Assembly (NCBI GenBank): GCA_001898835.1
Contig: MKVM01000003.1
Location: 597,842 to 661,841, forward strand
Direction: 5' to 3'
DNA length: 64,000 nucleotides
Source: Micrococcales bacterium 72-143
Lineage (GTDB): Bacteria; Actinomycetota; Actinomycetes; Actinomycetales; Microbacteriaceae
The notes beneath the pieces are model-generated. The model had not been told where the DNA came from and did no database searches. It was given only the letters and a program-made list of their open reading frames with translations. This document shows positions 4,154-63,971 of this stretch, piece by piece (position 1 is the first letter of the stretch; each line of letters opens with the position of its first letter). A program made the translations under genes and the position numbers.

Positions 4154-5302
4154 TCAGCGCAGCAGGAGGTTGGGCTGCAGCAGGTACTTGTAGTTGTCGG
4201 TTCCCGGGGCCTCGCGCGAGGACTGGCTCGTGATGAGCACCGGGCCGGGCTTGTTCGGGTTCTCGGTCTTGGTGAACGAGATCCTCACGAACTCGGAGTG
4301 GACGGCGCCGAGGCCGTCGAGTAGGAACGAGGGCTTGAGGGAGACGACCGTGTCCTCGCCGACGAGGTGCGCGTCGATCGTCTCGGATGCCTGCGCCTGC
4401 TCGGAGCCGGCGGCCTCGAGCGTCAGGCCGTCGGTCGACGAGAAGCTGAACCGAAGTGCGGCCTCCCGCTCGAGCACGAGCGAGACACGGCGGGTGGCCT
4501 CGACGAGCTCGGCCGTGTTGAGCACGGCGTAGTTCTCGACGGTCTCGGGGAAGAGGCGCTTCACGGGCGGGAAGTTGCCCTTGATGAGGAGCGAGGTGAC
4601 CGTCTTCTTGTCGGCCCGGAAGGCGATGAGCTCGCGGTCGTCACCTCGGACGATCGAGACGCCGATGGTGCCCGAGTGGGCGAAGGTCTTGCCGATCTCG
4701 GAGAGCGTGCGCGCGGGGACGAGCGCCGTCGTGCCGGCCGCGGACGAGGATCCGGAATCCCAGTCGATCTCGCGGACGGCGACGCGGTAGCGGTCGGTCG
4801 CGACGAGCGAGAGGCTGCTCTCCCCGACCTCGAGCTGAACGCCGGTGATCACGGGGGTGACGTCGTCGCGGGATGCGGCGACCGCGACCTGGGACACGGC
4901 GGCCGCGAACTCCTCGGCGGGGAGCACGCCCGTCTGGTCGTCGATCTGAGGAAGGGTCGGATACTCCTCGACCGGCATGCTCAGCAGCGTGAAGCGCGCG
5001 GAGCCGCAGCTCACCTGGATCTTGCCGTCGACGGTCTCGAATACGACGGGCGCATTCGGGAGCCGGCTCGCGATGTCGGCCAGCAGGCGACCCGAGACGA
5101 GGGCCGTACCCGCCTCATCCACCTCGGCCGTGATCTCGGTGCGGCTCGAGACCTCGTAGTCGAAGGACGAGAGCGTGAGGCCGGAGCCCTCCGCCTCGAG
5201 CAGCACGCCGCTCAGGATGGGCTGGGTGGTGCGCTGCGGCAGGAGCTTCACCGCGAATGACACCGCCTCGCTGAAGACGTCGCGATTCACCTGGAACTTC
5301 AC
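4154..5302 (-). CDS. dnaN: DNA polymerase III sliding clamp (beta subunit)
   Basis: Ring-shaped processivity clamp for the replicative polymerase, 382 residues in three repeated clamp domains. It opens MKFQVNRDVFSEAVSFAVKLLP and contains the typical LSGVLLEAEGSGLTLSSFDYE and DRYRVAVREIDW segments. The C-terminal end YLLQPNLLLR is non-canonical compared with the MPMR-type tail of enterobacteria but usual for actinobacteria. The GTG start at 5300-5302 is preceded by AAGGAG. The gene faces away from oriC. Confidence 0.97.
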   Translation of the reverse strand: MKFQVNRDVFSEAVSFAVKLLPQRTTQPILSGVLLEAEGSGLTLSSFDYEVSSRTEITAEVDEAGTALVSGRLLADIASRLPNAPVVFETVDGKIQVSCGSARFTLLSMPVEEYPTLPQIDDQTGVLPAEEFAAAVSQVAVAASRDDVTPVITGVQLEVGESSLSLVATDRYRVAVREIDWDSGSSSAAGTTALVPARTLSEIGKTFAHSGTIGVSIVRGDDRELIAFRADKKTVTSLLIKGNFPPVKRLFPETVENYAVLNTAELVEATRRVSLVLEREAALRFSFSSTDGLTLEAAGSEQAQASETIDAHLVGEDTVVSLKPSFLLDGLGAVHSEFVRISFTKTENPNKPGPVLITSQSSREAPGTDNYKYLLQPNLLLR

Positions 5303-5437
5303 GCGTCACTCCTTCTGAGTCGCATCGAGGGTCCGCACGGGTTGTGTCAACGATCTTGGCACGGACTCGAGCACTCTCGGTTATCGGCCGACGACGGAGA
5401 GGAAGAGATAGCTAATCGTCTTAACGCCTGTGCGAAC

Positions 5438-5446
5438 TGTGGATAA
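5438..5446 (-). promoter_or_regulatory. DnaA box (perfect match)
   Basis: TGTGGATAA, the reverse complement of the consensus TTATCCACA, next to an AT-rich stretch. Confidence 0.85.
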
Positions 5447-5596
5447 GTATGGTGCGCGCCGCCGACGTCAGGGAACTACATCCGTGGAAGTTGTGAGCGG
5501 GCTGCGGACGATTCGCCCCGGGATGTCGGGAAACTCGCGCGGGCCGATTCCACTGTCCACACCTCCGCTCGGCGCGTTCCACATCTCATCCGGAAG

Positions 5597-5605
5597 TTAT
5601 CCACA
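5597..5605 (+). promoter_or_regulatory. DnaA box (perfect match)
   Basis: TTATCCACA exactly. It lies 7 bases after the 15-mer CGTTCCACATCTCAT (5575-5589), which recurs upstream of dnaB. Confidence 0.85.
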
Positions 5606-5642
5606 GCGCTCTCCCCAGACTGTGCAACGCGAGCGGGAGGCT

Positions 5643-7040
5643 CTACGGGCGGTACCGCTGGTCCTGCTTGATGCGGGCGGTGAGCTCGGTGACCTGGTTG
5701 TAGATCGAACGGCGCTCCTTCATGAGCTCGCTGATCTTCTTGTTCGCGTACATGACGGTCGTGTGGTCGCGGTTGCCGAACAGCTGCCCGATCTTCGGCA
5801 GCGACAGGTTCGTCATCTCCCTGCACAGGTACATCGCGATCTGGCGCGCGGTCGCGACCGCCTGCGATCGTGACGAACCGTAGAGGTCGTCGACGGAGAG
5901 CTTGAAGTAGTCGGCCGTGTGATTGATGATGTCGACCGGCGAGATGACGTTGTCCTCGTCGAGCGTGATGAGGTCCTTGAGAACGGTCTGCACGAGGGCC
6001 AGGTCGACCGGCGTCTTGTTGAGGTTCGCGAACGCGGTGACGCGGATGAGGGTCCCCTCGAGCTCGCGGATGTTCGACGACACCTTCGTCGCCATGTACT
6101 CGAGGATGTCCTCCGGCACCTGCAGGCGCTCGGACTGCGCCTTCTTCCGCAGGATCGCGATACGGGTCTCGAGGTCGGGCGCCTGCACATCCGTGATGAG
6201 CCCCCACTCGAAGCGCGACCGCATGCGGTCCTCGAATCCGGTGAGGTGCTTGGGTGCCAGGTCGCTCGTGATGACGACCTGCTTGTTGTGATCGTGCAGC
6301 GTGTTGAAGGTGTGGAAGAAGGCCTCCTGGGTGGAGTCCTTGCCCTGCAGGAACTGGATGTCGTCGATGAGCAGGATGTCGATCTCGCGGTAGCGGGACT
6401 GGAAGACCGACGCCCGGTTGTTCGCGATCGAGTTGATGAAGTCGTTCGTGAACTCCTCCGAGCTCACATAGCGGACGCGGATGCCGGGATAGAGGCTCTC
6501 GGCGTAGTGGCCGATCGCGTGCAGCAGGTGGGTCTTGCCGAGACCGGAGTCGCCGTAGACGAAGAGCGGGTTGTAGGCCTTCGCCGGCGCCTCGGCGACC
6601 GCGACCGCGGCTGCATGCGCGAAGCGGTTCGACCCACCGATGACGAAGTTGTCGAAGTTGTACTTCGGGTTGAGGCGCGAGTCGCTGCGGCGGCCGAGCT
6701 CGATGACGGGGCTCAGCTGCTCGGCATGGGGGGAGTCGATGACGTCGTCGGCGACCGGCTGCAGGATGGGCTGGATCTCCGGGTTGACGACGATCGCGAA
6801 GTTGGTGACGTCGCCGTCGACGTCCGCGAGGGCGTCGAGCAGGGGCACCCGGATGCGCTGCTCGAGCATCCCGCGCGTGAGCTCGTTGGGCACCTCGAGG
6901 TAGATGGTCTCCCCCAGGACGCCCTTCGGCTCGACGAGGTTGATGAACCCGTGGAGCTGCGGCGTGATGCGGTCATCGGATGCGAGGCGGGCCTGCACGG
7001 CCGTCCACAGCTCCCGGGTGGGGTCCGCGGGATCGGTCAT
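5643..7040 (-). CDS. dnaA: Chromosomal replication initiator protein DnaA
   Basis: AAA+ initiator that binds DnaA boxes and melts the origin, 465 residues. The domain III core shows LNPKYNFDNFVIGGSNRFAH, Walker A GDSGLGKTHLL, Walker B LLIDDIQFLQGK and the sensor region. Domain IV carries the DNA-binding signature MYLCREMTNLSLPKIGQLFGNRDHTTVMYA near the C-terminus. The domain II linker is short compared with Streptomyces. The upstream leader (7041-7200) has several DnaA-box-like sites, which fits autoregulation. Confidence 0.98.
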   Translation of the reverse strand: MTDPADPTRELWTAVQARLASDDRITPQLHGFINLVEPKGVLGETIYLEVPNELTRGMLEQRIRVPLLDALADVDGDVTNFAIVVNPEIQPILQPVADDVIDSPHAEQLSPVIELGRRSDSRLNPKYNFDNFVIGGSNRFAHAAAVAVAEAPAKAYNPLFVYGDSGLGKTHLLHAIGHYAESLYPGIRVRYVSSEEFTNDFINSIANNRASVFQSRYREIDILLIDDIQFLQGKDSTQEAFFHTFNTLHDHNKQVVITSDLAPKHLTGFEDRMRSRFEWGLITDVQAPDLETRIAILRKKAQSERLQVPEDILEYMATKVSSNIRELEGTLIRVTAFANLNKTPVDLALVQTVLKDLITLDEDNVISPVDIINHTADYFKLSVDDLYGSSRSQAVATARQIAMYLCREMTNLSLPKIGQLFGNRDHTTVMYANKKISELMKERRSIYNQVTELTARIKQDQRYRP

Positions 7041-7222
7041 CTTCTCGTTCGTTCCTGGTGGTTATTCACAGCTCTGTCCACAGTGCTGGGGGCGATGGCA
7101 CGTCGTATCCAGCGGGATCCGGGTCCCTCGAGGATGACGACCACCTTAGTTGTGGACAGCGTCCTGTGGACAACTCCCTCTCGGCGGATGTGGAGAGAGC
7201 GGGGGTATCGTGAATCTCAAGT
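7041..7222. promoter_or_regulatory. dnaA promoter region with DnaA-box-like sites
   Basis: This spacer upstream of dnaA has TTATTCACA (7062-7070), CTGTCCACA (7074-7082), TGTGGACAG (7151-7159) and TGTGGACAA (7165-7173). The last is a perfect match to the TTGTCCACA variant on the minus strand. The boxes flank the likely dnaA promoter, so they could mediate autoregulation or belong to an extended origin. Confidence 0.6.
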
Positions 7223-7251
7223 TTGACCGTTGCCGGTCGAGGCCCTATTTT
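7223..7251 (+). promoter_or_regulatory. Strong housekeeping promoter of the rpmH operon
   Basis: A TTGACC -35 element at 7223-7228 and a TATTTT -10 element at 7246-7251 are separated by 17 bases. The run of T and A is conspicuous in this GC-rich sequence. The start of rpmH is 78 bases downstream. Confidence 0.65.
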
Positions 7252-7328
7252 TAACAGGTTGTCGGCATTCAGGCGCCGACCCCGTTCTTTCCCGGTCGCC
7301 GCACACACCGGGGCCAGGAGATATCACC

Positions 7329-7466
7329 ATGAGCAAGCGAACCTTCCAGCCGAACAACCGGCGCCGCGCCAAGAAGCACGGCTTCCGCCTCCGCATGCGC
7401 ACCCGCGCCGGCCGCGCCATCCTCGCGGCCCGCCGTCGCAAGGGGCGCACCGAGCTCTCCGCGTAG
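7329..7466 (+). CDS. rpmH: 50S ribosomal protein L34
   Basis: 45-residue basic ribosomal protein, [18 protein letters not shown] at its start and ending in [10 protein letters not shown], the classic L34 pattern. CAGGAG lies just upstream of the ATG. It leads the conserved rpmH-rnpA-yidD-yidC cluster and is divergent from dnaA. Confidence 0.98.
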
Positions 7467-7475
7467 TCGGGCGAC

Positions 7476-7814
7476 GTGCTGGCCAGGGCGAACCGAGTGG
7501 TCAAGCCCTCGGACTTCCGTGCGATCGTGCGCCGCGGGCGCCGGACCACGACGGCCAGCACGCTCATCTACCGGGTCGAGCGCGACCCCGCGGACCCCGC
7601 TCGTTTCGGGTTCATCGTCGCCAAGACCGTCGGCAACGCCGTCGAGAGGAACCTGGTGCGACGCCGGATGCGTGCCGTCTGCCGTTCGATCGTCGACGCC
7701 GGAGGCAGCGGATCGGATGTCGTCGTACGAGCACTCCCCGGGTCCGCCCAGCGCGACTGGACTAGTCTCTCCGCCGAGATGCACGCGATCCTCGACCCCG
7801 CCCTGATCCCATGA
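7476..7814 (+). CDS. rnpA: Ribonuclease P protein component
   Basis: Protein subunit that assists RNase P RNA in maturing tRNA 5' ends. 112 residues, with FGFIVAKTVGNAVERNLVRRRMR carrying the conserved RNR-type RNA-binding motif near residue 60. It starts on GTG 9 bases after rpmH. The stop overlaps the yidD start (ATGA). Confidence 0.95.
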   Translation: MLARANRVVKPSDFRAIVRRGRRTTTASTLIYRVERDPADPARFGFIVAKTVGNAVERNLVRRRMRAVCRSIVDAGGSGSDVVVRALPGSAQRDWTSLSAEMHAILDPALIP

Positions 7815-8125
7815 AGCGGGCCGGGCTCTTCCTCTGGCTGTTGCCGAGGAACATCTGCGTCGCGATCCTCCGCGGCTATCGCGCCGTCATCTCGCCGCTG
7901 TACGGCGACGTCTGCCGGTACTTCCCGAGCTGTTCCGCCTACGCGATGGGCTCCATCCAGCAGCACGGCGTGATCAAGGGGATCGCGCTCGGCAGCTGGC
8001 GCATCATGCGGTGCCACCCGTGGGCGCGCGGCGGAATCGACGACGTGCCGGAGTCGCGTCGTCACCACGACCACTATCACCTCACCCGATTCGGCTTCGT
8101 CGCCGCGGGACACGGAAAGGGCTGA
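7811..8125 (+). CDS. yidD: Membrane protein insertion efficiency factor YidD
   Basis: Small membrane-associated protein of 104 residues that assists YidC-dependent insertion. The family core is clear: GYRAVISPLYGDVCRYFPSCSAYA with the conserved cysteines, then WRIMRCHPWARGGIDDVP. It overlaps rnpA by 4 bases and precedes yidC by 9. The C-terminal 20 residues are histidine-rich and variable. Confidence 0.94.
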   Translation: MKRAGLFLWLLPRNICVAILRGYRAVISPLYGDVCRYFPSCSAYAMGSIQQHGVIKGIALGSWRIMRCHPWARGGIDDVPESRRHHDHYHLTRFGFVAAGHGKG

Positions 8126-53896: not shown

Positions 53897-54724
53897 TCAG
53901 AGCTCCGCGACGAACACGGAGCCGGATGCCGGATGCCGTGCGAGCTGTCCGGCGTCCAGCCCCTCTCGCGCGGTGGTGATGACGAGGGTGCGCTCGTCGA
54001 CGAGGACGCAGGAGGTCACGTGGGGGGCGTCGAGCTCGACGATCCGGTCGACCCGGCCGTCGTCGCGGTGGCGTCGCACCTCGCCGGCACCCCAGGCCGC
54101 GACCCACACGCCTCCCGCGGAATCGATCCACAGCCCGTCGGGCAGCCCGTCGTCGACGCGGAAGGCGGTGATCCAGCGGAGGGGGTCGCGTCGGTAGTCG
54201 CACCAGGACACGGTGCGCGCGAGCGAGTCGACGTGGTGCAGGCGCCCGTCGGGATGGAAGGCGACGCCGTTCGAGAGACGGACGCCCTCGCGCAGCACGG
54301 TCGTGCGGCCGTCCGGTTCGATGCGCAGCAACTGCTCGTGCGGCTCGTCGCGCCCCCGGGACAGGGTGCCCACGATGACGCGGCCGTCCGGGTCGAGGCA
54401 GCCGTCGTTGAGCCGTCGGACGCCGTCGTCGGGGAACAGCTCGGCGCCGCGCTCGATGGTGCCCTCGGCGGCCAGCCGGGCGACGCGCGTGCCCTCGGCG
54501 AGCACGAACCCTCCGCTGCCGTCGGGGAGTGCACACGATAGGGAGGTCGGCGCCTGGTGGAGCTGCGCGATCTCGTCCCACGCGCCGGGTGGGGCGGCGT
54601 AGAGCCGGCCCTTCTCGACGTCCACCCAGCTGACCCGACGCGTGACGGCGTCCCACCGGGCGCTCTCGCCGAGCTCCAGCCGCTGGGTGCCGACGGCGCG
54701 CGCGCGGACCCGGACTGGGCTCAT
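53897..54724 (-). CDS. SMP-30/gluconolactonase-type sugar lactonase
   Basis: 275-residue beta-propeller lactonase. ELGESARWDAVTRRVSWVDV carries the metal glutamate near 18; RLNDGCLDPDGRVIVGTL, RLSNGVAFHPDGR and DGLPDGLWIDSAGGVWVAAWGAGEVRR carry the asparagine and aspartate ligands. It likely hydrolyses an aldonolactone to the free acid. Starts on the ATG overlapping the SDR stop (ATGA). Third gene of the dgoD-SDR-lactonase operon; the substrate is inferred from dgoD to be galactonolactone. Confidence 0.88.
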   Translation of the reverse strand: MSPVRVRARAVGTQRLELGESARWDAVTRRVSWVDVEKGRLYAAPPGAWDEIAQLHQAPTSLSCALPDGSGGFVLAEGTRVARLAAEGTIERGAELFPDDGVRRLNDGCLDPDGRVIVGTLSRGRDEPHEQLLRIEPDGRTTVLREGVRLSNGVAFHPDGRLHHVDSLARTVSWCDYRRDPLRWITAFRVDDGLPDGLWIDSAGGVWVAAWGAGEVRRHRDDGRVDRIVELDAPHVTSCVLVDERTLVITTAREGLDAGQLARHPASGSVFVAEL

Positions 54725-55482
54725 GCGAAGCGCGCCCCGAGACCGCCGTCGACCTCCCAGTCGGCGCCGGTGACGTAGGAGGCGCGGTCGGAGCCCACGA
54801 ACACCACGACCTCCGCCACCTCGGCGGGCGTGCCGAGTCGGCGCAGCGGCTGGGTGGCGGTGATCCGGGCGCGCTCGTCGTTCCCGAGCCGCGCGAGGCC
54901 CGCTTCGACCCGCTCGCTGAGCGTCCAGCCGGGCGTCACGGTATTGACGCGGACACCGTGCGGCCCGAAGTCGAGGGCGAGCGAGCGGGTGAGGCCCGCC
55001 ACGCCGGCCTTCGCCGCGGCATAGGGGAACGCGCCCTCCGCCGTCTGGCGCGAGTGGAGCGAGCCGATGTTGACGATCGCGCCGCGGCGGCGCTCGACCA
55101 TCGAGGGCAGCACGGCGCGGCTGAGCAGCCACGGCGCCTTCAGGTCCAGGTCGAGCACGGCGTCCCACTCCGCGCCGGTCATCGAGCGGGCGTCGGCGGA
55201 GGAGTCGCGACTCGCGCTGTTGACGAGCACGTCGATCCCGGGCTCCTCCTCGAGGATGCGCGCGACCGCGGCCCCGACGGCGCCCTCGTCCGTCACGTCC
55301 ACCACGAGCGGATGCGCGCGCTCGCCGAGCGCCGTCGCCCGGGCGGCGAGCGCCGCGTCGTCGACGTCGAGCAGCCACACCGAGCGCGCCTCCTCGCGCA
55401 GGCCGGCGGCGGCGGTCGCCGCGCCGATCCCGAGCGCGCCGCCGGTGATGACGGCGGTCGCGCCGTGCCAGAGTCCTACCAT
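54721..55482 (-). CDS. SDR-family sugar 1-dehydrogenase (candidate galactose dehydrogenase)
   Basis: 253-residue classical SDR. TAVITGGALGIGAATA is the cofactor motif (TGxxxGIG), VLVNSAS the NNAG equivalent, INIGSLHSRQ the serine site and YAAAKAGVAG the YxxxK. It overlaps dgoD by 7 bases and the lactonase by 4. In such operons this SDR oxidises the aldose to its lactone. Galactose is inferred from the dgoD neighbour; L-fucose or arabinose are alternatives. Confidence 0.8.
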   Translation of the reverse strand: MVGLWHGATAVITGGALGIGAATAAAGLREEARSVWLLDVDDAALAARATALGERAHPLVVDVTDEGAVGAAVARILEEEPGIDVLVNSASRDSSADARSMTGAEWDAVLDLDLKAPWLLSRAVLPSMVERRRGAIVNIGSLHSRQTAEGAFPYAAAKAGVAGLTRSLALDFGPHGVRVNTVTPGWTLSERVEAGLARLGNDERARITATQPLRRLGTPAEVAEVVVFVGSDRASYVTGADWEVDGGLGARFA

Positions 55483-56624
55483 TCCGCGAGGCTCCCGTCG
55501 TCGTGGCGCCAGATGGGCGCGTGCCAATCGTGCCCGGTCTCGGCGGCGCGGCGCACGGCCTGCTCGTCGATCCGGATGCCGAGGCCGTCGCCCTCGAGTC
55601 GTGCGATGCCCCCGTCGACGATGTCGAAGACGCTCGTGTCGACGAGATAGTCGAGCACGTCCCAGCCCTCGTTGTAGTGGATACCGCGGCTCTGCTCCTG
55701 GATGAGGAAGTTCGGCGAGGCGAAGTCGACCTGGAGGCTCGCCGCGAGCGCGATCGGTCCGAGCGGTGAGTGGGGTGCGATCGACGCGCCGCGCAGCTCC
55801 GCCTGCGCGGCGATCCGCCGGGTCTCCGAGATGCCGCCGGCGTGCGAGACGTCGGGCTGCGCGACGGCGATGCCGGCGGCGAGCAGCGGGGCGAAATCCC
55901 ATCGCGAGTAGGCGCGCTCACCCGTCGCGATGGGGAGGGAGGTGCTCGCGACGAGCGCGGGCAGCTCGCTCGCGGCGAGCTCGGGCACCACGGGCTCCTC
56001 GACGAAGATCGGCAGCAGGGGCTCGAGCAGCGGCAGCACGCGCCGGGCCATGACGGGCGAGAAGCGTCCGTGGAAGTCGAGGGCGAGATCGCGCTCGTCC
56101 CCGAGTGCCTCGCGTGCGGTCGCCGCGCGCTCGACGACGCCGTGCAGCGCGGCCGGCGTGTCGATCGGGGTGAGCGCGGGAGACGCGTTCATCTTGACGG
56201 CGGTGAAGCCCTGCTCGAGGCGGAGCGCGATGTGCTCGGCGATCTCGGCGGGCCGGTCGCCGCCGATCCAGGCGTAGACGCGCGCCCGCTCCCGCACCGG
56301 CCCGCCGAGCAGCTCGTGCACGGGTACGCCGAGACGTTTGCCGGCGAGGTCCCAGAGGGCCTGGTCGATGCCGGCGATCGCGCTCGAGAGGATCGGGCCG
56401 CCGCGGTAGAAACCGCCGCGGGTGAGCTGCTGCCAGAGATCCTCGATGCGGCGCGGGTCGGCGCCGAGCAGTTGCGGGCGCAGCTCCTCGACGGCGGCCG
56501 CGACCGTCGCGGCACGACCCTCGACGACGGGCTCGCCCCAGCCGACGAGGCCGTCGTCCGTCTCGAGGCGGAGGAACAGCCAGCGCGGGGGGACGAGGAA
56601 GGTCTCGACCCGGGTGATTCTCAT
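55476..56624 (-). CDS. dgoD: D-galactonate dehydratase
   Basis: Enolase-superfamily enzyme of 382 residues, the same length as E. coli DgoD. It matches that protein along its length as I remember it: VPPRWLFLRLETDDGLVGWGEPVVEGRA, GFYRGGPILSSAIAGIDQALWDLAGK and the end WRHDDGSLAEW. Catalytic residues are in place: D183 and H185 (ALDFHGR), E209 (FVEEPV), E236 (ATGERAYSRWD) and H285 (APHSPLGP). It makes 2-keto-3-deoxy-D-galactonate. The ATG at 56624 has GGAGAGG upstream; a longer frame to 56708 is rejected because it covers the operator. Confidence 0.9.
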   Translation of the reverse strand: MRITRVETFLVPPRWLFLRLETDDGLVGWGEPVVEGRAATVAAAVEELRPQLLGADPRRIEDLWQQLTRGGFYRGGPILSSAIAGIDQALWDLAGKRLGVPVHELLGGPVRERARVYAWIGGDRPAEIAEHIALRLEQGFTAVKMNASPALTPIDTPAALHGVVERAATAREALGDERDLALDFHGRFSPVMARRVLPLLEPLLPIFVEEPVVPELAASELPALVASTSLPIATGERAYSRWDFAPLLAAGIAVAQPDVSHAGGISETRRIAAQAELRGASIAPHSPLGPIALAASLQVDFASPNFLIQEQSRGIHYNEGWDVLDYLVDTSVFDIVDGGIARLEGDGLGIRIDEQAVRRAAETGHDWHAPIWRHDDGSLAEW

Positions 56625-56646
56625 GGCGGACCCTCTCCGTCGTCGG

Positions 56647-56655
56647 TATCTGATA
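56647..56655. promoter_or_regulatory. Candidate GntR operator, dgoD side
   Basis: TATCTGATA, an exact odd-length palindrome (TATC-T-GATA), 23 bases upstream of dgoD. An identical copy lies 65 bases away at the gntR start. Confidence 0.65.
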
Positions 56656-56711
56656 GGGGGCTCACAGTCGAGCGGCGTTCTCCACGACTTTTGGTCGTTA
56701 CGCCGCAAACA

Positions 56712-56720
56712 TATCTGATA
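56712..56720. promoter_or_regulatory. Candidate GntR operator, gntR side
   Basis: Second exact TATCTGATA. It overlaps the likely -10 element (GATAAC, 56717-56722) of the leaderless gntR transcript, whose ATG is at 56731, so binding would be autoregulatory. Confidence 0.65.
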
Positions 56721-56730
56721 ACTTCATCGC

Positions 56731-57450
56731 ATGACGACCCTCGATGCTCCCGCGGTGTCCGCGCTCGACGCCGCGACCGAGGCCCTGCAGGAGCTCGTGG
56801 TCGAGTACCTGGCTCCCGGCGAGCAGCTGCCGGCGGAGGCGGAGCTCGCCGAGCGCTTCGGCGTCTCGCGCCTCACGATGCGCGAAGCCGTCAAGGTGCT
56901 CGCCGGCCGGGGACTGCTCGACGTGGCGCGCGGGCGCCGTGCGATCGTGCGCCGGCCTGAGAGCGGCGTGCTGTCGGACTACCTCGCGATCGCGCTGCGC
57001 CGCGACCCGCGGGGGCTGCTCGAGCTCACCGAGATCCGCCGCTCGCTCGAGGTGCTGAGCGTGGGCGCCGCGGCGCGGGCGGCGGCGCCGGCGGGGCTCA
57101 CGGCCATCCGTGACGCACTCGGACGCATGGCGGACGCGGTGGACGCCGACGACCTGGACGGGTACCACGCCGCCGACCTCGAGTTCCACGCCGCGGTCGC
57201 GCTCGCCGGAGGCAATCGCATGCTCGCGCTCCTGCTGGAGAGCCTCGCCTCCTGCCTGCGGGAGAGCTTCGCGGAGTCGGCGCGCGGGCACTTCGCCCGC
57301 GGGGGCACCATGACCGACGACCTCGACGCCCACCGTCGCATCGCCGGGGCGATCGCCGCCGGCGATGCCCGTGCGGCCGAGACCGCCATGCGCACGCACC
57401 TGGACGAGGCCGAGCGCGATCTGCGCGCCGCCCGGTCCGCGCGCGCCTGA
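56731..57450 (+). CDS. FadR/GntR-family transcriptional regulator with FCD domain
   Basis: 239 residues. Winged helix at about 15-80 (LAPGEQLPAEAELAERFGVSRLTMREAVKVLAGRGLLDV) and an FCD effector domain from about 100 (LEVLSVGAAARAA, DDLDGYHAADLEFHAAVALAGGN, AHRRIAGAIAAGDARAAETAMRTHL) with the histidine and aspartate metal-binding pattern. DgoR-type regulators of galactonate genes belong to this family. It faces dgoD and probably controls both arms of the locus. It begins leaderless. Confidence 0.9.
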   Translation: MTTLDAPAVSALDAATEALQELVVEYLAPGEQLPAEAELAERFGVSRLTMREAVKVLAGRGLLDVARGRRAIVRRPESGVLSDYLAIALRRDPRGLLELTEIRRSLEVLSVGAAARAAAPAGLTAIRDALGRMADAVDADDLDGYHAADLEFHAAVALAGGNRMLALLLESLASCLRESFAESARGHFARGGTMTDDLDAHRRIAGAIAAGDARAAETAMRTHLDEAERDLRAARSARA

Positions 57451-57484
57451 GCGCGCGAGAACCATCGATGAGGAGGACACCGCG

Positions 57485-58390
57485 ATGAGGCTGATGCGAA
57501 TCGGGGCACCGGGGGAGGAGACCGTCGCGGTCTCGGCCGACGGCATCACGGCGTGGGAGATCGGGCACCTGCTGCCGCCGGGCGACGACGGCGTGCTGAC
57601 GCCCGGGGGTCTCGCGGTCGCGCGGCGCGCCCTCGAGAACCCGGCCGGTCTCGTCGAGCGCCGACTCGACGAGGTGCGGATCGCGTCGCCGCTCGCCCGT
57701 CCCGGCAAGATCGTGTGCGTCGGCCTCAACTACCGCCGCCACGCGGCAGAGGCGGGCATGGCGGTGCCGGCCGAGCCCATCCTGTTCATGAAGGCGCCCG
57801 ACACCGTCGGCGGTCCGCACGACGACGTCGTCATCCCCCCGGGGAGCGTCAAGACCGACTACGAGGTGGAGCTCGCGGTCGTCATCGGCGACACCGTGCG
57901 CGCGCTCGGCTCGCCCGAGGAGGCGCTCGCGCACGTGGCCGGATACGCGGTCGCCGACGACGTCTCGGAGCGCGAGTTCCAGCTCGAGCGCGGCGGGCAG
58001 TGGGACAAGGGCAAGAACGCGGAGACCTTCTCCCCGCTCGGGCCGTTCCTGGTGACCGCCGACGAGGTGCCCGACCCGCAGGCGCTGCGGCTGCGCACCC
58101 GGATCGACGGCGAGGTCCGGCAGGACTCCAGCACCGCCGACATGATCTTCCCGGTCGCGCACCTGGTCTGGTACGCGAGCCGGTTCATGACGCTGTTCCG
58201 CGGCGATGTGATCCTCACCGGAACGCCCGAAGGCGTGGGATCCGGATTCGCGCCGCCGCGGTTCCTCGCCCACGGCTCGGTCGCCGAGCTCGAGATCGAG
58301 GGTCTCGGCGTGCAGCGGCACCGCTTCGTCGCGGCCGACTCGGCGGAGGCGCGGAGCCGCCTCGCGGCGATCGACGGGGTGCGGCGATGA
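57485..58390 (+). CDS. FAH-family 2,4-diketo-3-deoxy sugar acid hydrolase (candidate)
   Basis: 301-residue fumarylacetoacetate hydrolase-fold enzyme. KIVCVGLNYRRHAAEAGM, EPILFMKAPDTVGGPHDDVVIPP and DYEVELAVVIGDTV carry the metal acids (E, E, D). The KGKNAETFSPLGPFLVT and ILTGTPEGVGSGFAPPRFL segments are typical of the LRA6/diketo-deoxyfuconate hydrolase group, which cleave 2,4-diketo acids to pyruvate plus a hydroxy acid. GAGGAGG precedes the ATG. It is followed by an SDR with ATGA overlap, the pair used in hydrolytic rhamnose and fucose routes. Confidence 0.85.
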   Translation: MRLMRIGAPGEETVAVSADGITAWEIGHLLPPGDDGVLTPGGLAVARRALENPAGLVERRLDEVRIASPLARPGKIVCVGLNYRRHAAEAGMAVPAEPILFMKAPDTVGGPHDDVVIPPGSVKTDYEVELAVVIGDTVRALGSPEEALAHVAGYAVADDVSEREFQLERGGQWDKGKNAETFSPLGPFLVTADEVPDPQALRLRTRIDGEVRQDSSTADMIFPVAHLVWYASRFMTLFRGDVILTGTPEGVGSGFAPPRFLAHGSVAELEIEGLGVQRHRFVAADSAEARSRLAAIDGVRR

Positions 58391-59142
58391 GCGCCTTCCC
58401 CGACGGCTACGGCGTCATGGTCATCGGCGGAGGCGCGGGGATCGGCGAGGCGACCGCCAGGTACCTGGCGGCCGCGGGCGTCGCCGTCATGGTCGCCGAC
58501 CGCGACGCCGCAGGCGCCGAACGCGTCGCGGATGCGATCGTCGCCGCGGGCGGACGGGCGACGGGTGTGCGGGTCGACGTCACCGATCCCGAGACCCTCG
58601 CCGAGGCGCTCACGGCGATGCTCGGCTGGAACGGACGGCTGCACGGCGTGCTGAACTCGGCCGGGATCCAGGGTCCGCTGGGGCGGCCGAGCCACGAGGT
58701 CGAGATCGCGGAGTTCGAGTCCACGCTGCGGGTCAATCTCACCGCGGGTCTCGTGATCGCGCGCGAGCTCATCCCCGAGATGCTGCGCCACGGCTACGGC
58801 CGCGTCGTGCACCTCGCCTCGATCGCCGGCAAGGAGGGCAACCCGAACATGGTCGCCTACTCGGCGAGCAAGGCGGGGCTCATCGGCATGGTGAAGGCGC
58901 AGGGCAAGGAGTACGCGGGGACCGGGGTCGTGGTCAACGCCATCGCGCCCGCTGTGATCCGCACGCCGTTCCTCGACAGCCAGCCGGCCGAGGTCGTCGA
59001 CTACATGGTGCAGCGCATCCCCATGGGACGCGTGGGCGAGCCGGTTGAGGTCGCCGCGCTCGCCGCCTTCGCGGTGTCCCCCGCGTGCAGCTTCACGACC
59101 GGCTTCACCTTCGACGCGTCGGGCGGGCGGGCGACGTACTGA
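58387..59142 (+). CDS. SDR-family dehydrogenase (candidate 2-keto-3-deoxy sugar acid 4-dehydrogenase)
   Basis: 251-residue classical SDR. VMVIGGGAGIGEATARYLAA, LHGVLNSAGIQGPLG, LASIAGKEGNPNMVAYSASKAGLIG (serine and YxxxK) and FTFDASGGRATY. The IAGKEGNPN...YSASKAG segment resembles 2-keto-3-deoxyrhamnonate and fuconate 4-dehydrogenases. It would supply the diketo substrate of the FAH enzyme with which it is coupled. Substrate not proven. Confidence 0.8.
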   Translation: MSAFPDGYGVMVIGGGAGIGEATARYLAAAGVAVMVADRDAAGAERVADAIVAAGGRATGVRVDVTDPETLAEALTAMLGWNGRLHGVLNSAGIQGPLGRPSHEVEIAEFESTLRVNLTAGLVIARELIPEMLRHGYGRVVHLASIAGKEGNPNMVAYSASKAGLIGMVKAQGKEYAGTGVVVNAIAPAVIRTPFLDSQPAEVVDYMVQRIPMGRVGEPVEVAALAAFAVSPACSFTTGFTFDASGGRATY

Positions 59143-59143
59143 G

Positions 59144-60142
59144 ATGGACGCATCGCTGTCGGAGCTGCTCACCGGGGAGACGGTCGGCGGCTACCTCGCC
59201 GCCCGTGGCATCCCCGCCCGCGACGCCGCGGAGCCGCTCGCGGGCGGCGTGAGCAACGTCGTGCTCGCGGTGCGCGCGCAGGACGGCCGCGAACTCGTCG
59301 TGAAGCAGTCGCTCGAGCGACTCCGGGTGGCGGCCGAGTGGCACGCGCCGAAGCGGCGGATCCTGTCGGAGGCGGCGGGACTCGCGACGCTGCGGAGCCT
59401 GGATGCGGATGCCGCGCCCGCCGTCGTCGACGTCGATCCGGAGCGGATGGTGCTCGTGCTCGAGCGCGCACCCGAGGGCGCCGAGGACTGGAAGGCGGCG
59501 CTGCTGCGGGGCGAGGCGGATCCGGTGGTGGCCGCCCGCCTCGGCCGCATCGTCGGCCTCATGCACCGGGAGACCGCGGGCCGCCCGTTGCCCGCGCTGC
59601 TCGAGGACGATCCCGAGGCGTTCGAGGCGCTGCGCCTGGACCCGTATCACGGCGAGGTGGCCAGGCGGCTGCCCGGGCTCGCGGCGCGCGTGCGCGAGGT
59701 GGCCGATGGCATCCGGGCGACGCGCGTCTGCCTCGTGCACGGCGACCTCTCGCCGAAGAACGTTCTCGTACTGCCGGACGGGCGGGTCTGGCTCATCGAC
59801 TTCGAGGTGGCGCATCGTGGCGACCCGGTCTTCGACCTCGCCTTCCTGCTGAGCCACCTCGTGCTCAAGGCGATGCGCCGCCCCGAGGCCGCCGAGCGCT
59901 ACGTCGACGCCGCAGATGCGTTCCTCGCCGCCTATCGCGAGTCGCGGGGGGCGATCCCGCCCGACGCGGAGCTCCTCCCGCAGCTGGCCTGCCTGCTGCT
60001 CGCGCGTGTCGTCGGCAAGTCGCCCGTCGACTACCTGGACTCCGCGCAGCGCGACGCGGTGCTCGCCATCGGAACCCGGCTGCTGGGCGGCGCGCCGCCC
60101 AGCCTCGCCGCGCTCCTCGACCAGCTCCGGAGGCTGTCATGA
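59144..60142 (+). CDS. APH-fold small-molecule kinase, unknown substrate (candidate glycerate kinase)
   Basis: 332-residue phosphotransferase of the aminoglycoside/choline kinase fold. ATP lysine K54 (LVVKQS), catalytic loop CLVHGDLSPKNVLV (D201, N206) and metal motif LIDFEVAHRGDPVFDLAF (D219). SNVVLAV is the glycine-loop equivalent. Starts 1 base after the SDR and overlaps the enolase paralog by 4 bases, so kinase and enolase are coupled. Family members include methylthioribose and homoserine kinases; a glycerate substrate is inferred only from the pathway. Confidence 0.85.
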   Translation: MDASLSELLTGETVGGYLAARGIPARDAAEPLAGGVSNVVLAVRAQDGRELVVKQSLERLRVAAEWHAPKRRILSEAAGLATLRSLDADAAPAVVDVDPERMVLVLERAPEGAEDWKAALLRGEADPVVAARLGRIVGLMHRETAGRPLPALLEDDPEAFEALRLDPYHGEVARRLPGLAARVREVADGIRATRVCLVHGDLSPKNVLVLPDGRVWLIDFEVAHRGDPVFDLAFLLSHLVLKAMRRPEAAERYVDAADAFLAAYRESRGAIPPDAELLPQLACLLLARVVGKSPVDYLDSAQRDAVLAIGTRLLGGAPPSLAALLDQLRRLS

Positions 60143-61419
60143 CCGCCGATTCCATCGTCCGCGTGCTCGCCTGGGAGGCTCTCGACTCGCGCGGCAGGCC
60201 GACGGTCGCCTGCCGGGTCGAGACGGCGGGGGGTGCGGTCGGCCGGGCGATCGCGCCGTCCGGCGCCTCCCGCGGTGCGCACGAGGCGGTCGAGCGCCGA
60301 GACGGCGGAACCCGCTACGGAGGTTACGGTGTGCGCGGCGCGGTCGCGGCGGTACAGGGCGAGCTCGCCCCGCTGGTGGTCGGCCGGCGCGCCGCCGATC
60401 GCGTCGCGATCGACGACGACATCGAGGCGCTCGACGGCGAACCCGGGTTCGCGCGCCTCGGCGGGAACGCGGCGCTCGCGGTCTCGCTCGCGGTGACCCT
60501 CGCGCACGCCGCGGCGGAGCGCGAGCCGCTCTGGCGCACCCTCGACGACGGGCCGCGGCCGCTCATCCCGATGCCGATGGTCAACATCCTCTCGGGCGGT
60601 GCGCACGCCGGCGGCGCGATCGACCTGCAGGACTTCCTCGCCGTCCCGGTCGGCGCGTCCTCGTTCGCGGAGGCGATCGAGTGGGTCTCGCGGGTGCGCG
60701 CGGCATGCGCGGCGGCCGTCGACGCCGCGGGCGGATGGTCGGCGCTCGTCGCCGACGAGGGCGGCCTCTCCGCGCGCCTGGACTCGAACGAGGACGCGCT
60801 CAGGATCCTGACGTCGGGTATCGAGGATGCCGGCCTGGTGCCCGGTGAGCAGCTCGCCGTCGCGATCGACGTCGCGGCCAGCCAGCTCGTGGAGGACGGT
60901 CGGATCCGGCTCGCGACGGAGTCGATGGGTCTCGACTCGGCGGCGTGGGTGGCGCGCGTGGCCGAGTGGGTCGGACGCTACCCGATCGTGTCGGTCGAGG
61001 ACGTGCTCGGCGAGGACGACTGGGACGGCTGGGCCGTCGCGGCGCGCGCGCTGCCGGGCATCCAGCTCGTCGGCGACGACCTCTTCGCGACCGACGCCGG
61101 GCGGCTGGCGCGCGGCATCCGGGAGGGCGCCGCGAACGCGGTGCTCGTGAAGGTCAACCAGGCGGGTTCGGTGACCCGGGCCGAGCGGGTGGTGCGTGCG
61201 GCTCGGGCCGCGGGCCTGGCGCAGATCGTGAGCGCGCGTTCCGGGGACACCGAGGACGACTGGCTCGCCGATCTCGCGGTGGGCTGGCGCGCGGGGCAGA
61301 TCAAGGTCGGCTCGACGATGCGCAGCGAGCGCACGGCGAAGTGGAACCGGCTGCTCGAGCTGGAGGCGAGCGGCGAGACCGCCTTCGCGGGCCGGCGGGG
61401 GATCGCGCCGCTCGGCTGA
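60139..61419 (+). CDS. Enolase paralog with altered active-site residues
   Basis: 426-residue enolase-family protein, full length. Intact: S41 loop serine (PSGAS), H156 (GGAHAGG), E207 (ADEGG), metal acids D244, E287 and D313, base K338 (LVKVNQAGS), R367-S368 and K389. Changed: D165 replaces the glutamate of the QEFM motif (LQDFL; yeast E168), A366 replaces the histidine of SHRSGET (SARSGDT; yeast H373), and R45 replaces the loop threonine of SGASTG. So it is not the housekeeping enolase and may have shifted specificity. It ends the gntR-arm operon. Confidence 0.9.
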   Translation: MTADSIVRVLAWEALDSRGRPTVACRVETAGGAVGRAIAPSGASRGAHEAVERRDGGTRYGGYGVRGAVAAVQGELAPLVVGRRAADRVAIDDDIEALDGEPGFARLGGNAALAVSLAVTLAHAAAEREPLWRTLDDGPRPLIPMPMVNILSGGAHAGGAIDLQDFLAVPVGASSFAEAIEWVSRVRAACAAAVDAAGGWSALVADEGGLSARLDSNEDALRILTSGIEDAGLVPGEQLAVAIDVAASQLVEDGRIRLATESMGLDSAAWVARVAEWVGRYPIVSVEDVLGEDDWDGWAVAARALPGIQLVGDDLFATDAGRLARGIREGAANAVLVKVNQAGSVTRAERVVRAARAAGLAQIVSARSGDTEDDWLADLAVGWRAGQIKVGSTMRSERTAKWNRLLELEASGETAFAGRRGIAPLG

Positions 61420-61435: not shown

Positions 61436-62464
61436 TCAGAGGGTCGAGTTGCGCACGACGACGCGGCCCGGCACCACGTGCTCGCCGGGTCGCGGCGAGC
61501 CGTCCATCGCCTCGAAGAGCAGCTGGGCCGCGAGGCGACCGACCTCCTGGAGGTTCATGTCGATCGTCGACAGCGGGGGCGTGGACTCGGCCGCGAAGAT
61601 CTCCCAGTTGTCGTGTCCGAGCACCGCGACGTCCTCGGGCACGCGGCGGCCGGCGGCCGCGAGGGCATCCATGACGCCTCGTGCGATCTGGTCGCTGCCG
61701 CACATCACCGCGTCGATCCCGGGCGCGCGCTCCATCAGGATGTGGGCCGCCTGCCGCCCCCAGCGCTCCGACCAGGGACCGTACAGCACGGGCGTCGCGA
61801 GCTCGCGTCCGACCGCGGTGAGCGCCGCGAGGGCGCCCTCGGCGCGTTCGCGGGCGGCGTCGTAGCTCGCGTCGCCGCCGACGTAGGCGAAGCGTTCGCG
61901 CCCGACGGCGAGCAGGTGCTCCATCCCGACCCGTCCTGCCTGGCGGTTGTCGGTGATGACCGACATGTCGCGACCGTCGAGGGAGGCGCCGTAGGCGTAG
62001 ACGACCGGCACGGGAAGGTCGCGCCCGAGCGAGGGGCGGGGCGCGGCGCTGTCCGCGACGACGATGAGCCCGTCGACGCGGCGGTTCAGCAGGGCGTTCA
62101 GGTGGTGCTGTTCGCGGATCGCGTCGCCGCGGGCGTCGCAGAGGAAGACGGAGAGGCTGCCGGCGCCGAGCGCGTCCTCGGCACCCATCAGGATGGGCAG
62201 CGAGAACCGCCCGATGAGGTCGTTGGTGAGGAGGCCGACCGTGCCGGTCTTCCCGGCGAGAAGACCCTGGGCGAGGGGGTTGGGGCGGAAGCTGAGCTTG
62301 CGCGCCGCGTCCTCGACGATCGCGCGGGTGTCCGCGCTGATGCCCGTCCGGCCGTTGAGAACCTTTGACACCGTAGCGATCGACACCCCGGCGAGGGCCG
62401 CGACGTCCCGCAGGGTGGGCTGTCGTCGCGGCGGGGGCGCCTCGTCCGCAAGGGACTGCGTCAC
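61436..62464 (-). CDS. LacI-family transcriptional regulator
   Basis: 342 residues. Helix-turn-helix LRDVAALAGVSIATVSKVLNGR with the hinge LSFRPNPLAQGLLAGKTGTVGLL, then a periplasmic-binding-protein-like sensor domain ending in VVVRNSTL. It is divergent from the sugar-binding protein gene and converges on the enolase paralog. It probably represses the transporter in response to the imported sugar. Confidence 0.93.
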   Translation of the reverse strand: MTQSLADEAPPPRRQPTLRDVAALAGVSIATVSKVLNGRTGISADTRAIVEDAARKLSFRPNPLAQGLLAGKTGTVGLLTNDLIGRFSLPILMGAEDALGAGSLSVFLCDARGDAIREQHHLNALLNRRVDGLIVVADSAAPRPSLGRDLPVPVVYAYGASLDGRDMSVITDNRQAGRVGMEHLLAVGRERFAYVGGDASYDAARERAEGALAALTAVGRELATPVLYGPWSERWGRQAAHILMERAPGIDAVMCGSDQIARGVMDALAAAGRRVPEDVAVLGHDNWEIFAAESTPPLSTIDMNLQEVGRLAAQLLFEAMDGSPRPGEHVVPGRVVVRNSTL

Positions 62465-62516
62465 GGCTGGGTCTCCTCGTCATCGAGCGTCGAAGGATGT
62501 AATGGATGGGCGGTGT

Positions 62517-62572
62517 TTGACAATCGTACATGGCGGCATCTACGCTTTGGAAAAGGTTTTCGATAAGTTTCC
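62517..62572 (+). promoter_or_regulatory. Promoter and candidate LacI operator of the sugar ABC transporter
   Basis: A -35 TTGACA (62517-62522) and a -10 TACGCT (62541-62546) are 18 bases apart. Right after the -10, GAAAAGGTTTTCGATAAGTT TCC (62550-62572) is AT-rich with imperfect dyad symmetry (GGAAA ... TTTCC), as expected for a LacI-type operator at the transcription start. Confidence 0.6.
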
Positions 62573-62672
62573 GCGCACAGCTGCCCGGAGACCCGAAAGC
62601 ACCAGCCGGACGCGCAGCATCATCCGTCCGGCGACATCCCGCTCTCAACGACGAGTAGAAAGGCACCACAGG

Positions 62673-63971
62673 ATGGACACCGCAGCTGTCAACCGCCGCA
62701 TGCGCAGGAAGGGGTGGCTCGCCGGCGGCGCCGCGCTCGCCGCCGCCGTCCTCGCGCTCACCGGATGCACGACCCCCGACAACGGCGGGGGCGGCTCCTC
62801 CACGGGCGAGGCCGTCGACGACGGCACCACGCTGACGATGTGGACGCGCGCCGCGACCCAGACGCAGAGCGAGGCGTTCGTCGCGGCGTACAACGCCTCC
62901 CACAAGAACCAGATCAAGCTCACCGTCATCCCCACGGACGACTACCAGGCCAAGATCGGCACCGCGGCCGGCAGCAACAGCCTCCCCGACCTGTTCGCCT
63001 CCGACGTCGCCTACCTGCCGAACTACACCTCGGCGGGACTGTTCCAGGACATCACCGACCGGATCGACGGCCTCGACTTCGCCGCCGACCTCGCGCAGTC
63101 GCACATCGACGCCGGCACCTGGAAGGGCAAGAAGTACGCGGTACCGCACACCATCGACGTGTCCGTGCTGTTCTACAACAAGGACCTCTACCAGCAGGCC
63201 GGCCTCGACCCGGAGGCGCCCCCCACCACTCTCGAGGAGCTCGGCGAGCAGGCGCGCGCCGTCGCGAAGCTCGGGGGAGACATCGGCGGCACCTACTTCG
63301 GCGGGAACTGCGGCGGATGCCTCGCCTTCACCTGGTGGCCGTCGATCTGGGCGGCAGGCGGCGAGGTCATGAACGCCGACGGCACCGAGTCCCTCCTGAA
63401 CTCCGCGGAGGCGAAGGCGGTCTACGCGTTCTACCGTGGGCTCTACGAGGACGGCGCCGTCGCGTCGGGCGCCAAGGAGGAGACCGGAGCCACCTGGACG
63501 GCCCCCTTCCCCGACGGCAAGGTCGGCGTCATGCCGATGCCCTCCACGATGCTCGGGCAGATGCCCTCGTCGACCGGTGTCGCAGCGATCCCCGGCCTCG
63601 GCGGGGGCGCATCGACCTTCGTCGGCGGTGACGCGATCGGCATCTCCAACTCGAGCACGCACGCCGACCAGGCGTGGGACTTCATCGCGTGGTCGCTCGG
63701 CGACGAGGCCCAGGTCGAGGTGCTGGCGAAGAACGGCGACGTCGTCGCGCGGACCGACCTCGCGTCGAACAAGTACTCGGAGGCCGACCCGCGGCTCGTG
63801 ACGATCAACGAGGTCGCGGCCAAGGGGCGCACCCCGCTCGCGATCAACATGGGCGCTGCCGTGAACGACCCGAACGGGCCCTGGACGGTGCTGTTCCGCG
63901 ACGCCGTCTTCGGCGACGCGAGCAGGATCGACGCCGACAACGACGCCATCACCGCGATCCTCGCGGGCTGA
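62673..63971 (+). CDS. Sugar ABC transporter substrate-binding lipoprotein
   Basis: 432-residue CUT1-type binding protein. Signal peptide with lipobox LALTGCTT (Cys near 31), a low-complexity GGGGSS linker, then TLTMWTRAATQTQSEAFVAAYNAS, KYAVPHTIDVSVLFYNKDLYQQAGLDP and NCGGCLAFTWWPSIWAAGGEV. The ATG at 62673 is preferred; the frame opens far upstream through the operator. The permease and ATPase genes are presumably beyond the right edge. Substrate probably a galactose-containing sugar, by context. Confidence 0.92.
   Translation: MDTAAVNRRMRRKGWLAGGAALAAAVLALTGCTTPDNGGGGSSTGEAVDDGTTLTMWTRAATQTQSEAFVAAYNASHKNQIKLTVIPTDDYQAKIGTAAGSNSLPDLFASDVAYLPNYTSAGLFQDITDRIDGLDFAADLAQSHIDAGTWKGKKYAVPHTIDVSVLFYNKDLYQQAGLDPEAPPTTLEELGEQARAVAKLGGDIGGTYFGGNCGGCLAFTWWPSIWAAGGEVMNADGTESLLNSAEAKAVYAFYRGLYEDGAVASGAKEETGATWTAPFPDGKVGVMPMPSTMLGQMPSSTGVAAIPGLGGGASTFVGGDAIGISNSSTHADQAWDFIAWSLGDEAQVEVLAKNGDVVARTDLASNKYSEADPRLVTINEVAAKGRTPLAINMGAAVNDPNGPWTVLFRDAVFGDASRIDADNDAITAILAG

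What the first reader, a model, noticed from the sequence alone, without database searches (positions are those of the whole stretch)
53897..61419. Candidate galactose pathway: galactonate to pyruvate plus D-glycerate to PEP, with diketo hydrolase, kinase and enolase paralog
The divergent locus encodes, in two coupled operons, a sugar SDR, an SMP-30 lactonase, D-galactonate dehydratase, a KDG-type 4-dehydrogenase SDR, an FAH diketo hydrolase, an APH-fold kinase and an enolase paralog. By analogy with hydrolytic L-rhamnose and L-fucose routes, 2-keto-3-deoxygalactonate oxidised at C4 and hydrolysed between C3 and C4 gives pyruvate plus D-glycerate; C5 keeps its D configuration. Glycerate 2-kinase would then make 2-phosphoglycerate, and an enolase PEP. 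That explains why a kinase and an enolase close the operon, and why DgoK and DgoA are absent. I know of no described galactonate route ending this way.
Basis: partly seen in the sequence, partly recalled or inferred. Interest (0 to 1): 0.88.

Follow-up and report, generated by a model that had tools for sequence, protein, structure and literature searches.

The report
Galactonate route with altered enolase module
A bacterium carries two back-to-back operons that likely break galactonate down to pyruvate and glycerate by hydrolysis rather than by an aldolase, and that end in a kinase and an enolase relative whose two residues at the water-holding site are changed in nearly all relatives examined, so the last step is predicted to be an unusual version of one of life's oldest reactions.

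Summary
The genes are as described, at the stated coordinates: SMP-30 lactonase, SDR, D-galactonate dehydratase on one strand; GntR, FAH hydrolase, SDR, APH-fold kinase, enolase paralog on the other, ends overlapping or abutting except after GntR. The gap between the operons holds two TATCTGATA sites, the only two in the 3.33-Mb genome; Microbacterium (exact) and Paraoerskovia (one mismatch each) keep such a pair at the same 65-bp spacing. [quoted passage not shown] A hydrolytic route to pyruvate plus glycerate fits families and motifs; no step is assayed. The main correction: the enolase keeps metal ligands, lysine base and phosphate/carboxylate residues, but Glu168 and His373, which in a solved enolase hold the water at C3, are Asp and Ala in all 120 closest homologues. 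The kinase-enolase pair recurs in bacteria and archaea, often beside FAH with an SDR or 2-hydroxyacid dehydrogenase; 34 of 36 genomes tested have at least two enolase matches. It is likely a dedicated glycerate-to-PEP-type module, and the kinase product may not be 2-phospho-D-glycerate.

The parts
53897..54724 (-). SMP-30/gluconolactonase family protein, 275 aa; likely aldonolactonase
   Evidence: Pfam SGL 171 bits; motifs GES, SNG, PDG present (their role as metal ligands is recalled)
54721..55482 (-). SDR1, 253 aa; candidate sugar 1-dehydrogenase, overlaps SMP-30 gene by 4 bp
   Evidence: SDR families only, none of the 25 shown above cut-off; gene ends
55476..56624 (-). DgoD-like D-galactonate dehydratase, 382 aa, overlaps SDR1 gene by 7 bp
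   Evidence: PRK14017 562.8 bits, cut-off 311; 3rr1; D183/H185, E209, H285, E310 present (catalytic roles recalled)
56625..56730 (.). shared divergent promoter gap of 106 bp
   Evidence: gene ends; read
56647..56655 (+). operator-like palindrome TATCTGATA, copy 1
   Evidence: 2 in whole genome, both here
56712..56720 (+). operator-like palindrome TATCTGATA, copy 2, 65 bp from copy 1
56731..57450 (+). GntR/FadR-type regulator, 239 aa
   Evidence: 19 models matched, NanR and LldR best, all below cut-off
57485..58390 (+). FAH-family hydrolase, 301 aa; likely 2,4-diketo-3-deoxygalactonate hydrolase
   Evidence: Pfam 241 bits; 8gsr 221 bits; H86/E89
58387..59142 (+). SDR2, 251 aa; likely KDGal 4-dehydrogenase, overlaps FAH gene by 4 bp
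   Evidence: SDR family; linkage to FAH in L013, L014, L034
59144..60142 (+). APH-fold kinase, 332 aa; predicted hydroxy-acid (glycerate) kinase
   Evidence: Pfam APH; AF2 pLDDT 93.6; nearest folds methylthioribose kinases, TM to query up to 0.80, 16-18% identity
60139..61419 (+). enolase paralog, 426 aa, Glu168->Asp (D165) and His373->Ala (A366); overlaps kinase gene by 4 bp
   Evidence: TIGR01060 417 bits; residue checks; motifs
61436..62464 (-). LacI-family regulator, likely of the neighbouring sugar ABC transporter
   Evidence: LacI-family models, all below cut-off
62673..63971 (+). likely sugar ABC solute-binding protein; two permeases follow outside the window (L004 17-892, 896-1720)
   Evidence: three weak matches below cut-off, MalE best; permeases Pfam BPD_transp_1

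Best explanation
This is a two-operon locus, with one pair of operator-like sites between the operons, that likely runs a hydrolytic D-galactonate pathway and would end by sending the glycerate half into PEP through an APH-fold kinase and an enolase paralog with a changed C3 pocket. Predicted order: sugar -> lactone (SDR1) -> galactonate (SMP-30) -> 2-keto-3-deoxygalactonate (DgoD) -> 2,4-diketo acid (SDR2) -> pyruvate + D-glycerate (FAH) -> 2-phospho acid (kinase) -> PEP or its like (paralog). Shown by the calls: gene set, motifs, operator-like sites, no match to DgoK or to the KDPG/KDPGal aldolase family, recurrence of the kinase-enolase pair, its D168/A373 signature and its enrichment beside FAH. 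Inferred: every substrate, the 4-oxidation, the cleavage point, the phosphorylated position and the final product. The paralog likely keeps the enolase half-reaction (proton taken at C2 by lysine, phosphate on C2) but handles the C3 leaving group differently.
For: DgoD model 562.8 bits over cut-off 311. FAH nearest solved relative is a diketo-deoxyrhamnonate hydrolase and it has the His-Glu pair that PMC6336799 (section 10 read) gives for such hydrolases. No PF05035 and no PF01081 match in the genome. Kinase and paralog: of 94 kinase loci, 75 have the paralog within 1.5 kb on the same strand, 81 within 8 kb. Around these 81: FAH 29 hits in 566 kb within 4 kb against 4 in 488 kb at 5-10 kb; 2-hydroxyacid dehydrogenase 18 against 0; IlvD dehydratase 10 against 0; MR dehydratase 14 against 5. 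Kinase-enolase-FAH-SDR also sit in a row in Paracoccus and Roseibium. PEP carboxylase lies one gene away from the kinase in two Rhizobium plasmids, which fits PEP as product. Operator-like pair: only two exact sites in the genome, both here; 65-bp spacing also in Microbacterium and Paraoerskovia.
Against: No assay. [quoted passage not shown] A freshwater actinobacterial locus (L051) holds FAH and the pair together with a PfkB kinase and a PF01081 aldolase, so the hydrolytic set need not replace the aldolase route. SDR2's nearest solved relatives are not named as 4-dehydrogenases of keto-deoxy acids. 56 of 81 pair loci show no FAH within 4 kb (some contigs are short). General SDRs are hardly enriched near the pair (25 against 17). 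Some loci pair the module with aromatic-ring genes, where the acid may be another one.
Confidence: 0.5

Rival explanations
1. The kinase product is not 2-phospho-D-glycerate: the pair works on a 2-phospho acid that normal enolase cannot use (2-phospho-L-glycerate, or an acid with a larger or different group at C3), and the D168/A373 change fits that group.
For: Both replaced residues hold the water 3.5 A from C3 of PEP in a solved enolase (PMC8996150 passages); 34 of 36 genomes from kinase loci have two or more enolase matches, so plain enolase activity is not missing; the pair recurs in many lineages incl. haloarchaea; the Microbulbifer pair lies beside proteins with agarase and porphyranase domains, an SMP-30 protein and a member of a sulfatase cluster, a setting rich in L-galactose derivatives (the chemistry is recalled).
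Against: D-galactonate gives D-glycerate by its C5 configuration, so in this window the ordinary enantiomer is expected. The one charge gained family-wide is Arg for Gln (167 of 179) at a place outside the catalytic motifs, so a sulfonate or second carboxylate has no obvious partner; an enlarged pocket does not by itself explain the L form.
Confidence: 0.3
2. The paralog is an ordinary, perhaps slower, enolase kept as a private copy in a transferred operon; the residue changes are tolerated drift.
For: 417 bits on the enolase equivalog model; lysine base, metal ligands, Glu211, Arg374, Ser375, Lys396 kept.
Against: Drift would not be expected to give Asp 120/120 and Ala 120/120, nor a fully supported split from normal enolases (FastTree 1.0, UFBoot 100).
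Confidence: 0.15
3. Galactonate is cleaved by a DHDPS-family aldolase elsewhere in the genome (not searched) and the FAH/SDR pair serves another compound.
For: The aldolase route to D-glyceraldehyde is the known non-phosphorylative route (PMC12076931 passages); a haloarchaeal pair locus has dgoD next to a DHDPS-family gene.
Against: DgoD faces the FAH-SDR2 operon across one gap with operator-like sites in the window, L014 and L034, and sits beside it in L013 too.
Confidence: 0.1

Closest known systems
Route III non-phosphorylative pathways (L-rhamnose, L-fucose, pentoses)
   Same: dehydratase, SDR 4-dehydrogenase, FAH-type hydrolase with His-Glu pair, pyruvate as one product (section 10 of PMC6336799)
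   Different: there the second product is lactate or glycolate; here a hexonate would give glycerate, and a kinase and enolase paralog are added
L-galactose to lactate and glycerate by the mammalian L-fucose route (Chan 1979, seen only as a reference title in PMC13406643)
   Same: glycerate from a six-carbon sugar of the galactose type
   Different: L series; no kinase-enolase module mentioned
Non-phosphorylative Entner-Doudoroff route
   Same: D-galactonate can end as D-glycerate, 2-PG, PEP (passages)
   Different: aldolase and glyceraldehyde dehydrogenase, known glycerate kinases, normal enolase
DeLey-Doudoroff (DgoK/DgoA)
   Same: DgoD
   Different: kinase and aldolase families of that route have no match here
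Enolase (phosphopyruvate hydratase)
   Same: sequence family, metal ligands, lysine base, Arg374, Ser375, Lys396
   Different: Glu168 and His373 replaced; linked to an APH-fold kinase
Methylthioribose kinase
   Same: nearest solved fold of the kinase
   Different: about 17% identity; 50 bits against a cut-off of 275

Membership tests
Route III hydrolytic aldonate pathway | aldonate dehydratase, SDR and FAH hydrolase in one locus | tested here: met
   shared gap with operator-like sites
Route III hydrolytic aldonate pathway | hydrolase His-Glu pair | tested here: met
   H86/E89, compared
Route III hydrolytic aldonate pathway | SDR oxidises C4 of the keto-deoxy acid | tested here: inconclusive
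   SDR family only; no specific model or named solved relative
Route III hydrolytic aldonate pathway | pyruvate and a hydroxy acid formed | not testable with these tools
   needs assay
Canonical enolase EC 4.2.1.11 | equivalog score | tested here: met
   417 bits, cut-off 300
Canonical enolase EC 4.2.1.11 | metal ligands, Lys345, Lys396, Arg374, Ser375, Glu211 | tested here: met
Canonical enolase EC 4.2.1.11 | Glu168 and His373 at the C3/water site | tested here: not met
   D and A
DeLey-Doudoroff pathway | DgoK (PF05035) and KDPG/KDPGal aldolase (PF01081) | tested here: not met
   0 matches in own genome
Glycerate kinase classes I-III | Gly_kinase, MOFRL or PRK/uridine-kinase type sequence | tested here: not met
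   of the two Pfam matches listed only APH is above cut-off; classes as
Glycerate kinase (by activity) | phosphorylates glycerate | not testable with these tools
   needs assay
Methylthioribose kinase | TIGR01767 above cut-off | tested here: not met
   50.1 bits, cut-off 275

The most novel reading that the evidence does not exclude
The APH-fold kinase and the D168/A373 enolase are a new two-enzyme module, shared by bacteria and archaea and plugged into sugar-acid and aromatic pathways: the kinase makes a 2-phospho-hydroxyacid that normal enolase cannot use (for instance 2-phospho-L-glycerate or a C3-substituted acid) and the paralog, a true change of function inside the glycolytic enolase family, eliminates it to PEP or an analogue.
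Probability: 0.35. Interest if true: 0.87.

Novelty: new variant of a known kind. Interest (0 to 1): 0.7.

Why it matters
Glycolytic enolase is usually treated as a single-function family, and NCBI's model scores this paralog as phosphopyruvate hydratase. A widely spread clade with two near-fixed changes at the water site, linked to a kinase of unknown substrate, would mean that many genomes carry a misnamed enzyme. It also offers a direct test of how enolase chooses its leaving group. The pathway, if right, adds a hydrolytic branch to galactonate catabolism that bypasses phosphorylated sugar acids.

Tried and rejected
Sulfo-sugar reading (kinase product 2-phospho-3-sulfolactate, paralog releasing sulfite): considered because the C3 pocket should be larger. 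Kept only as a case of the first rival: the single family-wide gained charge, Arg for Gln, lies outside the catalytic motifs. Sulfite-handling genes were not searched for; none was among the products named or scanned.

Kinase as a stand-in for a missing glycerate kinase: rejected as sole reason; PF02595 is in 14 of 21 pair-bearing genomes, own included. Class II (MOFRL) glycerate kinases were not searched.

Paralog as the only enolase of its genome: 34 of 36 genomes have two or more matches. The two with one (G017, G029) come from metagenome bins, and the coordinates of the single match fit the pair locus, so they may be incomplete.

Kinase as DgoK substitute acting on KDGal: not favoured, as the pair recurs next to 2-hydroxyacid dehydrogenases and ring-cleavage genes in stretches where no DgoD is annotated.

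Deciding D or L from the Microbulbifer agar locus: its dehydratase scored 260 bits, below the galactonate dehydratase cut-off of 311, so it stayed open.

Tree support: one search printed 0.495 for the paralog clade after my re-rooting; read on the unrooted tree the split has FastTree 1.0, and an IQ-TREE run gave 100.

Literature: nine searches ran. In the rows listed (at most 20 each, of up to 669 hits) I saw no paper on this kinase-enolase pair or on a hydrolytic D-galactonate route; the library holds open-licence papers only.

Full report
What is there. The span 53897-61419 holds seven enzyme genes and one regulator. Minus strand, in reading order: DgoD-like dehydratase 56624-55476, SDR1 55482-54721, SMP-30 54724-53897, with 7-bp and 4-bp overlaps. 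Plus strand: GntR 56731-57450, FAH 57485-58390, SDR2 58387-59142, kinase 59144-60142, enolase paralog 60139-61419, overlapping or abutting except after GntR. A LacI gene and a likely sugar ABC transporter follow.

Shared control. The 106-bp gap between the operons holds two TATCTGATA palindromes. For TATCWGATA in the window, 100 dinucleotide-preserving shuffles gave no match. A whole-genome count of TATCTGATA on both strands gave exactly these two, with 0 for the pattern read backwards. The DgoD/FAH gap of Microbacterium L014 has TATCAGATA and TATCTGATA 65 bp apart, as here; Paraoerskovia L034 has two one-mismatch sites 65 bp apart; Galbitalea L013 has one exact and one two-mismatch site 76 bp apart. 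Of 1197 sampled 106-bp windows in these four sequences, 1 had two sites at up to two mismatches. So the dehydratase and FAH operons are probably one regulon; the binding protein is presumably the local GntR (inferred).

Families. The dehydratase is far above the galactonate dehydratase cut-off. The FAH protein's best solved match is the L-2,4-diketo-3-deoxyrhamnonate hydrolase, and it has the His-Glu pair at H86/E89 that the Herbaspirillum study describes for hydrolases of this kind (section 10 of PMC6336799). The two SDRs cannot be assigned by sequence. [quoted passage not shown] D-KDGal shares its C4 arrangement with L-KDP (established chemistry), so SDR2 would have to be of the L-KDP/L-KDR type. 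A review says that the mammalian L-KDF dehydrogenase accepts 2-keto-3-deoxy-D-galactonate (passages of PMC13406643).

Genome background. DgoK family PF05035 and aldolase family PF01081 have no match in the 99.93%-complete genome. A galactokinase domain, a class I glycerate kinase PF02595 and a normal enolase are present. PF01081 members exist in two of the other three genomes tested that have the locus (G002, G010).

The kinase-enolase pair. With 14 plasmid loci added, 94 kinase loci were examined: 75 have the paralog within 1.5 kb on the same strand and 81 within 8 kb. Record titles of pair loci include Actinomycetota, Chloroflexi, Acidobacteria, Planctomycetes, Armatimonadetes, Bacteroidetes, Proteobacteria and haloarchaea. 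In the 81 loci, FAH and 2-hydroxyacid dehydrogenase genes are concentrated near the pair compared with 5-10 kb away (29 against 4 hits; 18 against 0), as are IlvD dehydratases (10 against 0) and MR dehydratases (14 against 5). SDRs (25 against 17), SMP-30 (7 against 4) and aldehyde dehydrogenases (8 against 4) are little enriched (all). FAH lies within 4 kb in 25 of 81. Many of these loci are related, so the counts are not independent. At least one of FAH, MR dehydratase, IlvD, SMP-30, aldehyde dehydrogenase or 2-hydroxyacid dehydrogenase lies within 6 kb in 51 of 81. Kinase-enolase-FAH-SDR sit in a row in Paracoccus and Roseibium. PEP carboxylase is one gene away from the kinase in two Rhizobium plasmids. 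Other loci add ring-cleavage dioxygenases or agar enzymes. Within Actinomycetota strong matches are sparse: 4 of 296 sampled genomes, own included, at E 1e-40, with 7 candidates scored per genome, and 1 of 40 relatives, the window's own genome, at 1e-30. This points to horizontal transfer (inferred).

The enolase paralog. The 120 best-scoring homologues (own included, of 7868 found) all have Asp at yeast position 168 and Ala at 373; Ser39 is Ala in 5 of them. Of 63 paralogs called at the contig loci, 63 have Asp at 168; at 373, 59 have Ala, one Gly, one Val and two are cut off. Fourteen of 14 plasmid loci have Asp; 13 Ala, one Gly. Sixteen normal enolases, own and 15 from kinase-bearing genomes, all have Glu and His; against 179 paralogs, most other family-wide changes also lie beside catalytic motifs. 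The yeast numbering was assigned from motifs and is recalled. The Synechococcus structure paper places a water 3.5 A from C3 of PEP, bonded to Glu168 and His367 (the His373 equivalent, by motif), with the lysine base on the other side (passages of PMC8996150). So exactly this water-side pair is altered and the rest of the site is kept. The split between 15 normal enolases and 69 paralogs has full support (FastTree 1.0; UFBoot 100). Of 36 genomes from kinase loci, 34 have at least two enolase matches.

Kinase. AlphaFold2 model with mean pLDDT 93.6. Nearest folds are methylthioribose kinases at 16-18% identity. HGDxxxxN and IDFE motifs are present.

Reading. What this does not explain is why a kinase-enolase pair with a changed water site travels together when glycerate kinase and enolase are already at hand. 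Two answers remain: a dedicated D-glycerate to PEP arm with altered kinetics, or a kinase product that normal enolase cannot use. I put the pathway at 0.5 and the second answer, as novel case, at 0.35; they overlap.

What is and is not new. Hydrolytic Route III is known for deoxyhexoses and pentoses. A glycerate, 2-PG, PEP ending is known for non-phosphorylative Entner-Doudoroff routes, which D-galactonate can enter (passages of PMC2063504 and PMC12076931). A review of sugar-acid routes shows aldolase and DgoK/DgoA-type routes for D-galactonate in the passages seen. In nine searches of an open-licence library I saw no listed paper on a hydrolytic D-galactonate route or on this enolase clade.

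Noticed in passing
L127 (Enterobacter chuandaensis plasmid), about 5211-7918: A distant kinase relative (31%) lies divergently beside a 29%-identical enolase annotated as hypothetical protein, with Asp at 168 and Gly at 373, in a cluster with a U32 peptidase, aminotransferase and iron redox enzyme that looks biosynthetic.
   Followed up: partly
L120, L128 (Rhizobium plasmids): PEP carboxylase, 2-hydroxyacid dehydrogenase-type gene and kinase in a row, with the enolase paralog about 4.6 kb away beside a VOC-family gene, HpaD-like in L120.
   Followed up: partly
L046, L121: Kinase-enolase pair in loci with ring-cleavage-type dioxygenase and oxidoreductase genes (plus FAH in L046), suggesting an aromatic substrate.
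   Followed up: no
L051 (freshwater actinobacterium): PfkB kinase and KDPG-type aldolase near SMP-30, SDR, FAH and the pair, as if two galactonate-type routes share one locus.
   Followed up: no
L024, L050, L058 and other kinase loci without the paralog: 13 of 94 kinase loci have no paralog within 8 kb; L063 has one about 9 kb away and L025 is cut off, while Chloroflexi ones share their own neighbour set.
   Followed up: no
window 61436-63971 and L004 17-1720: LacI regulator and likely sugar ABC importer directly downstream; the LacI/importer gap lacks TATCWGATA.
   Followed up: partly
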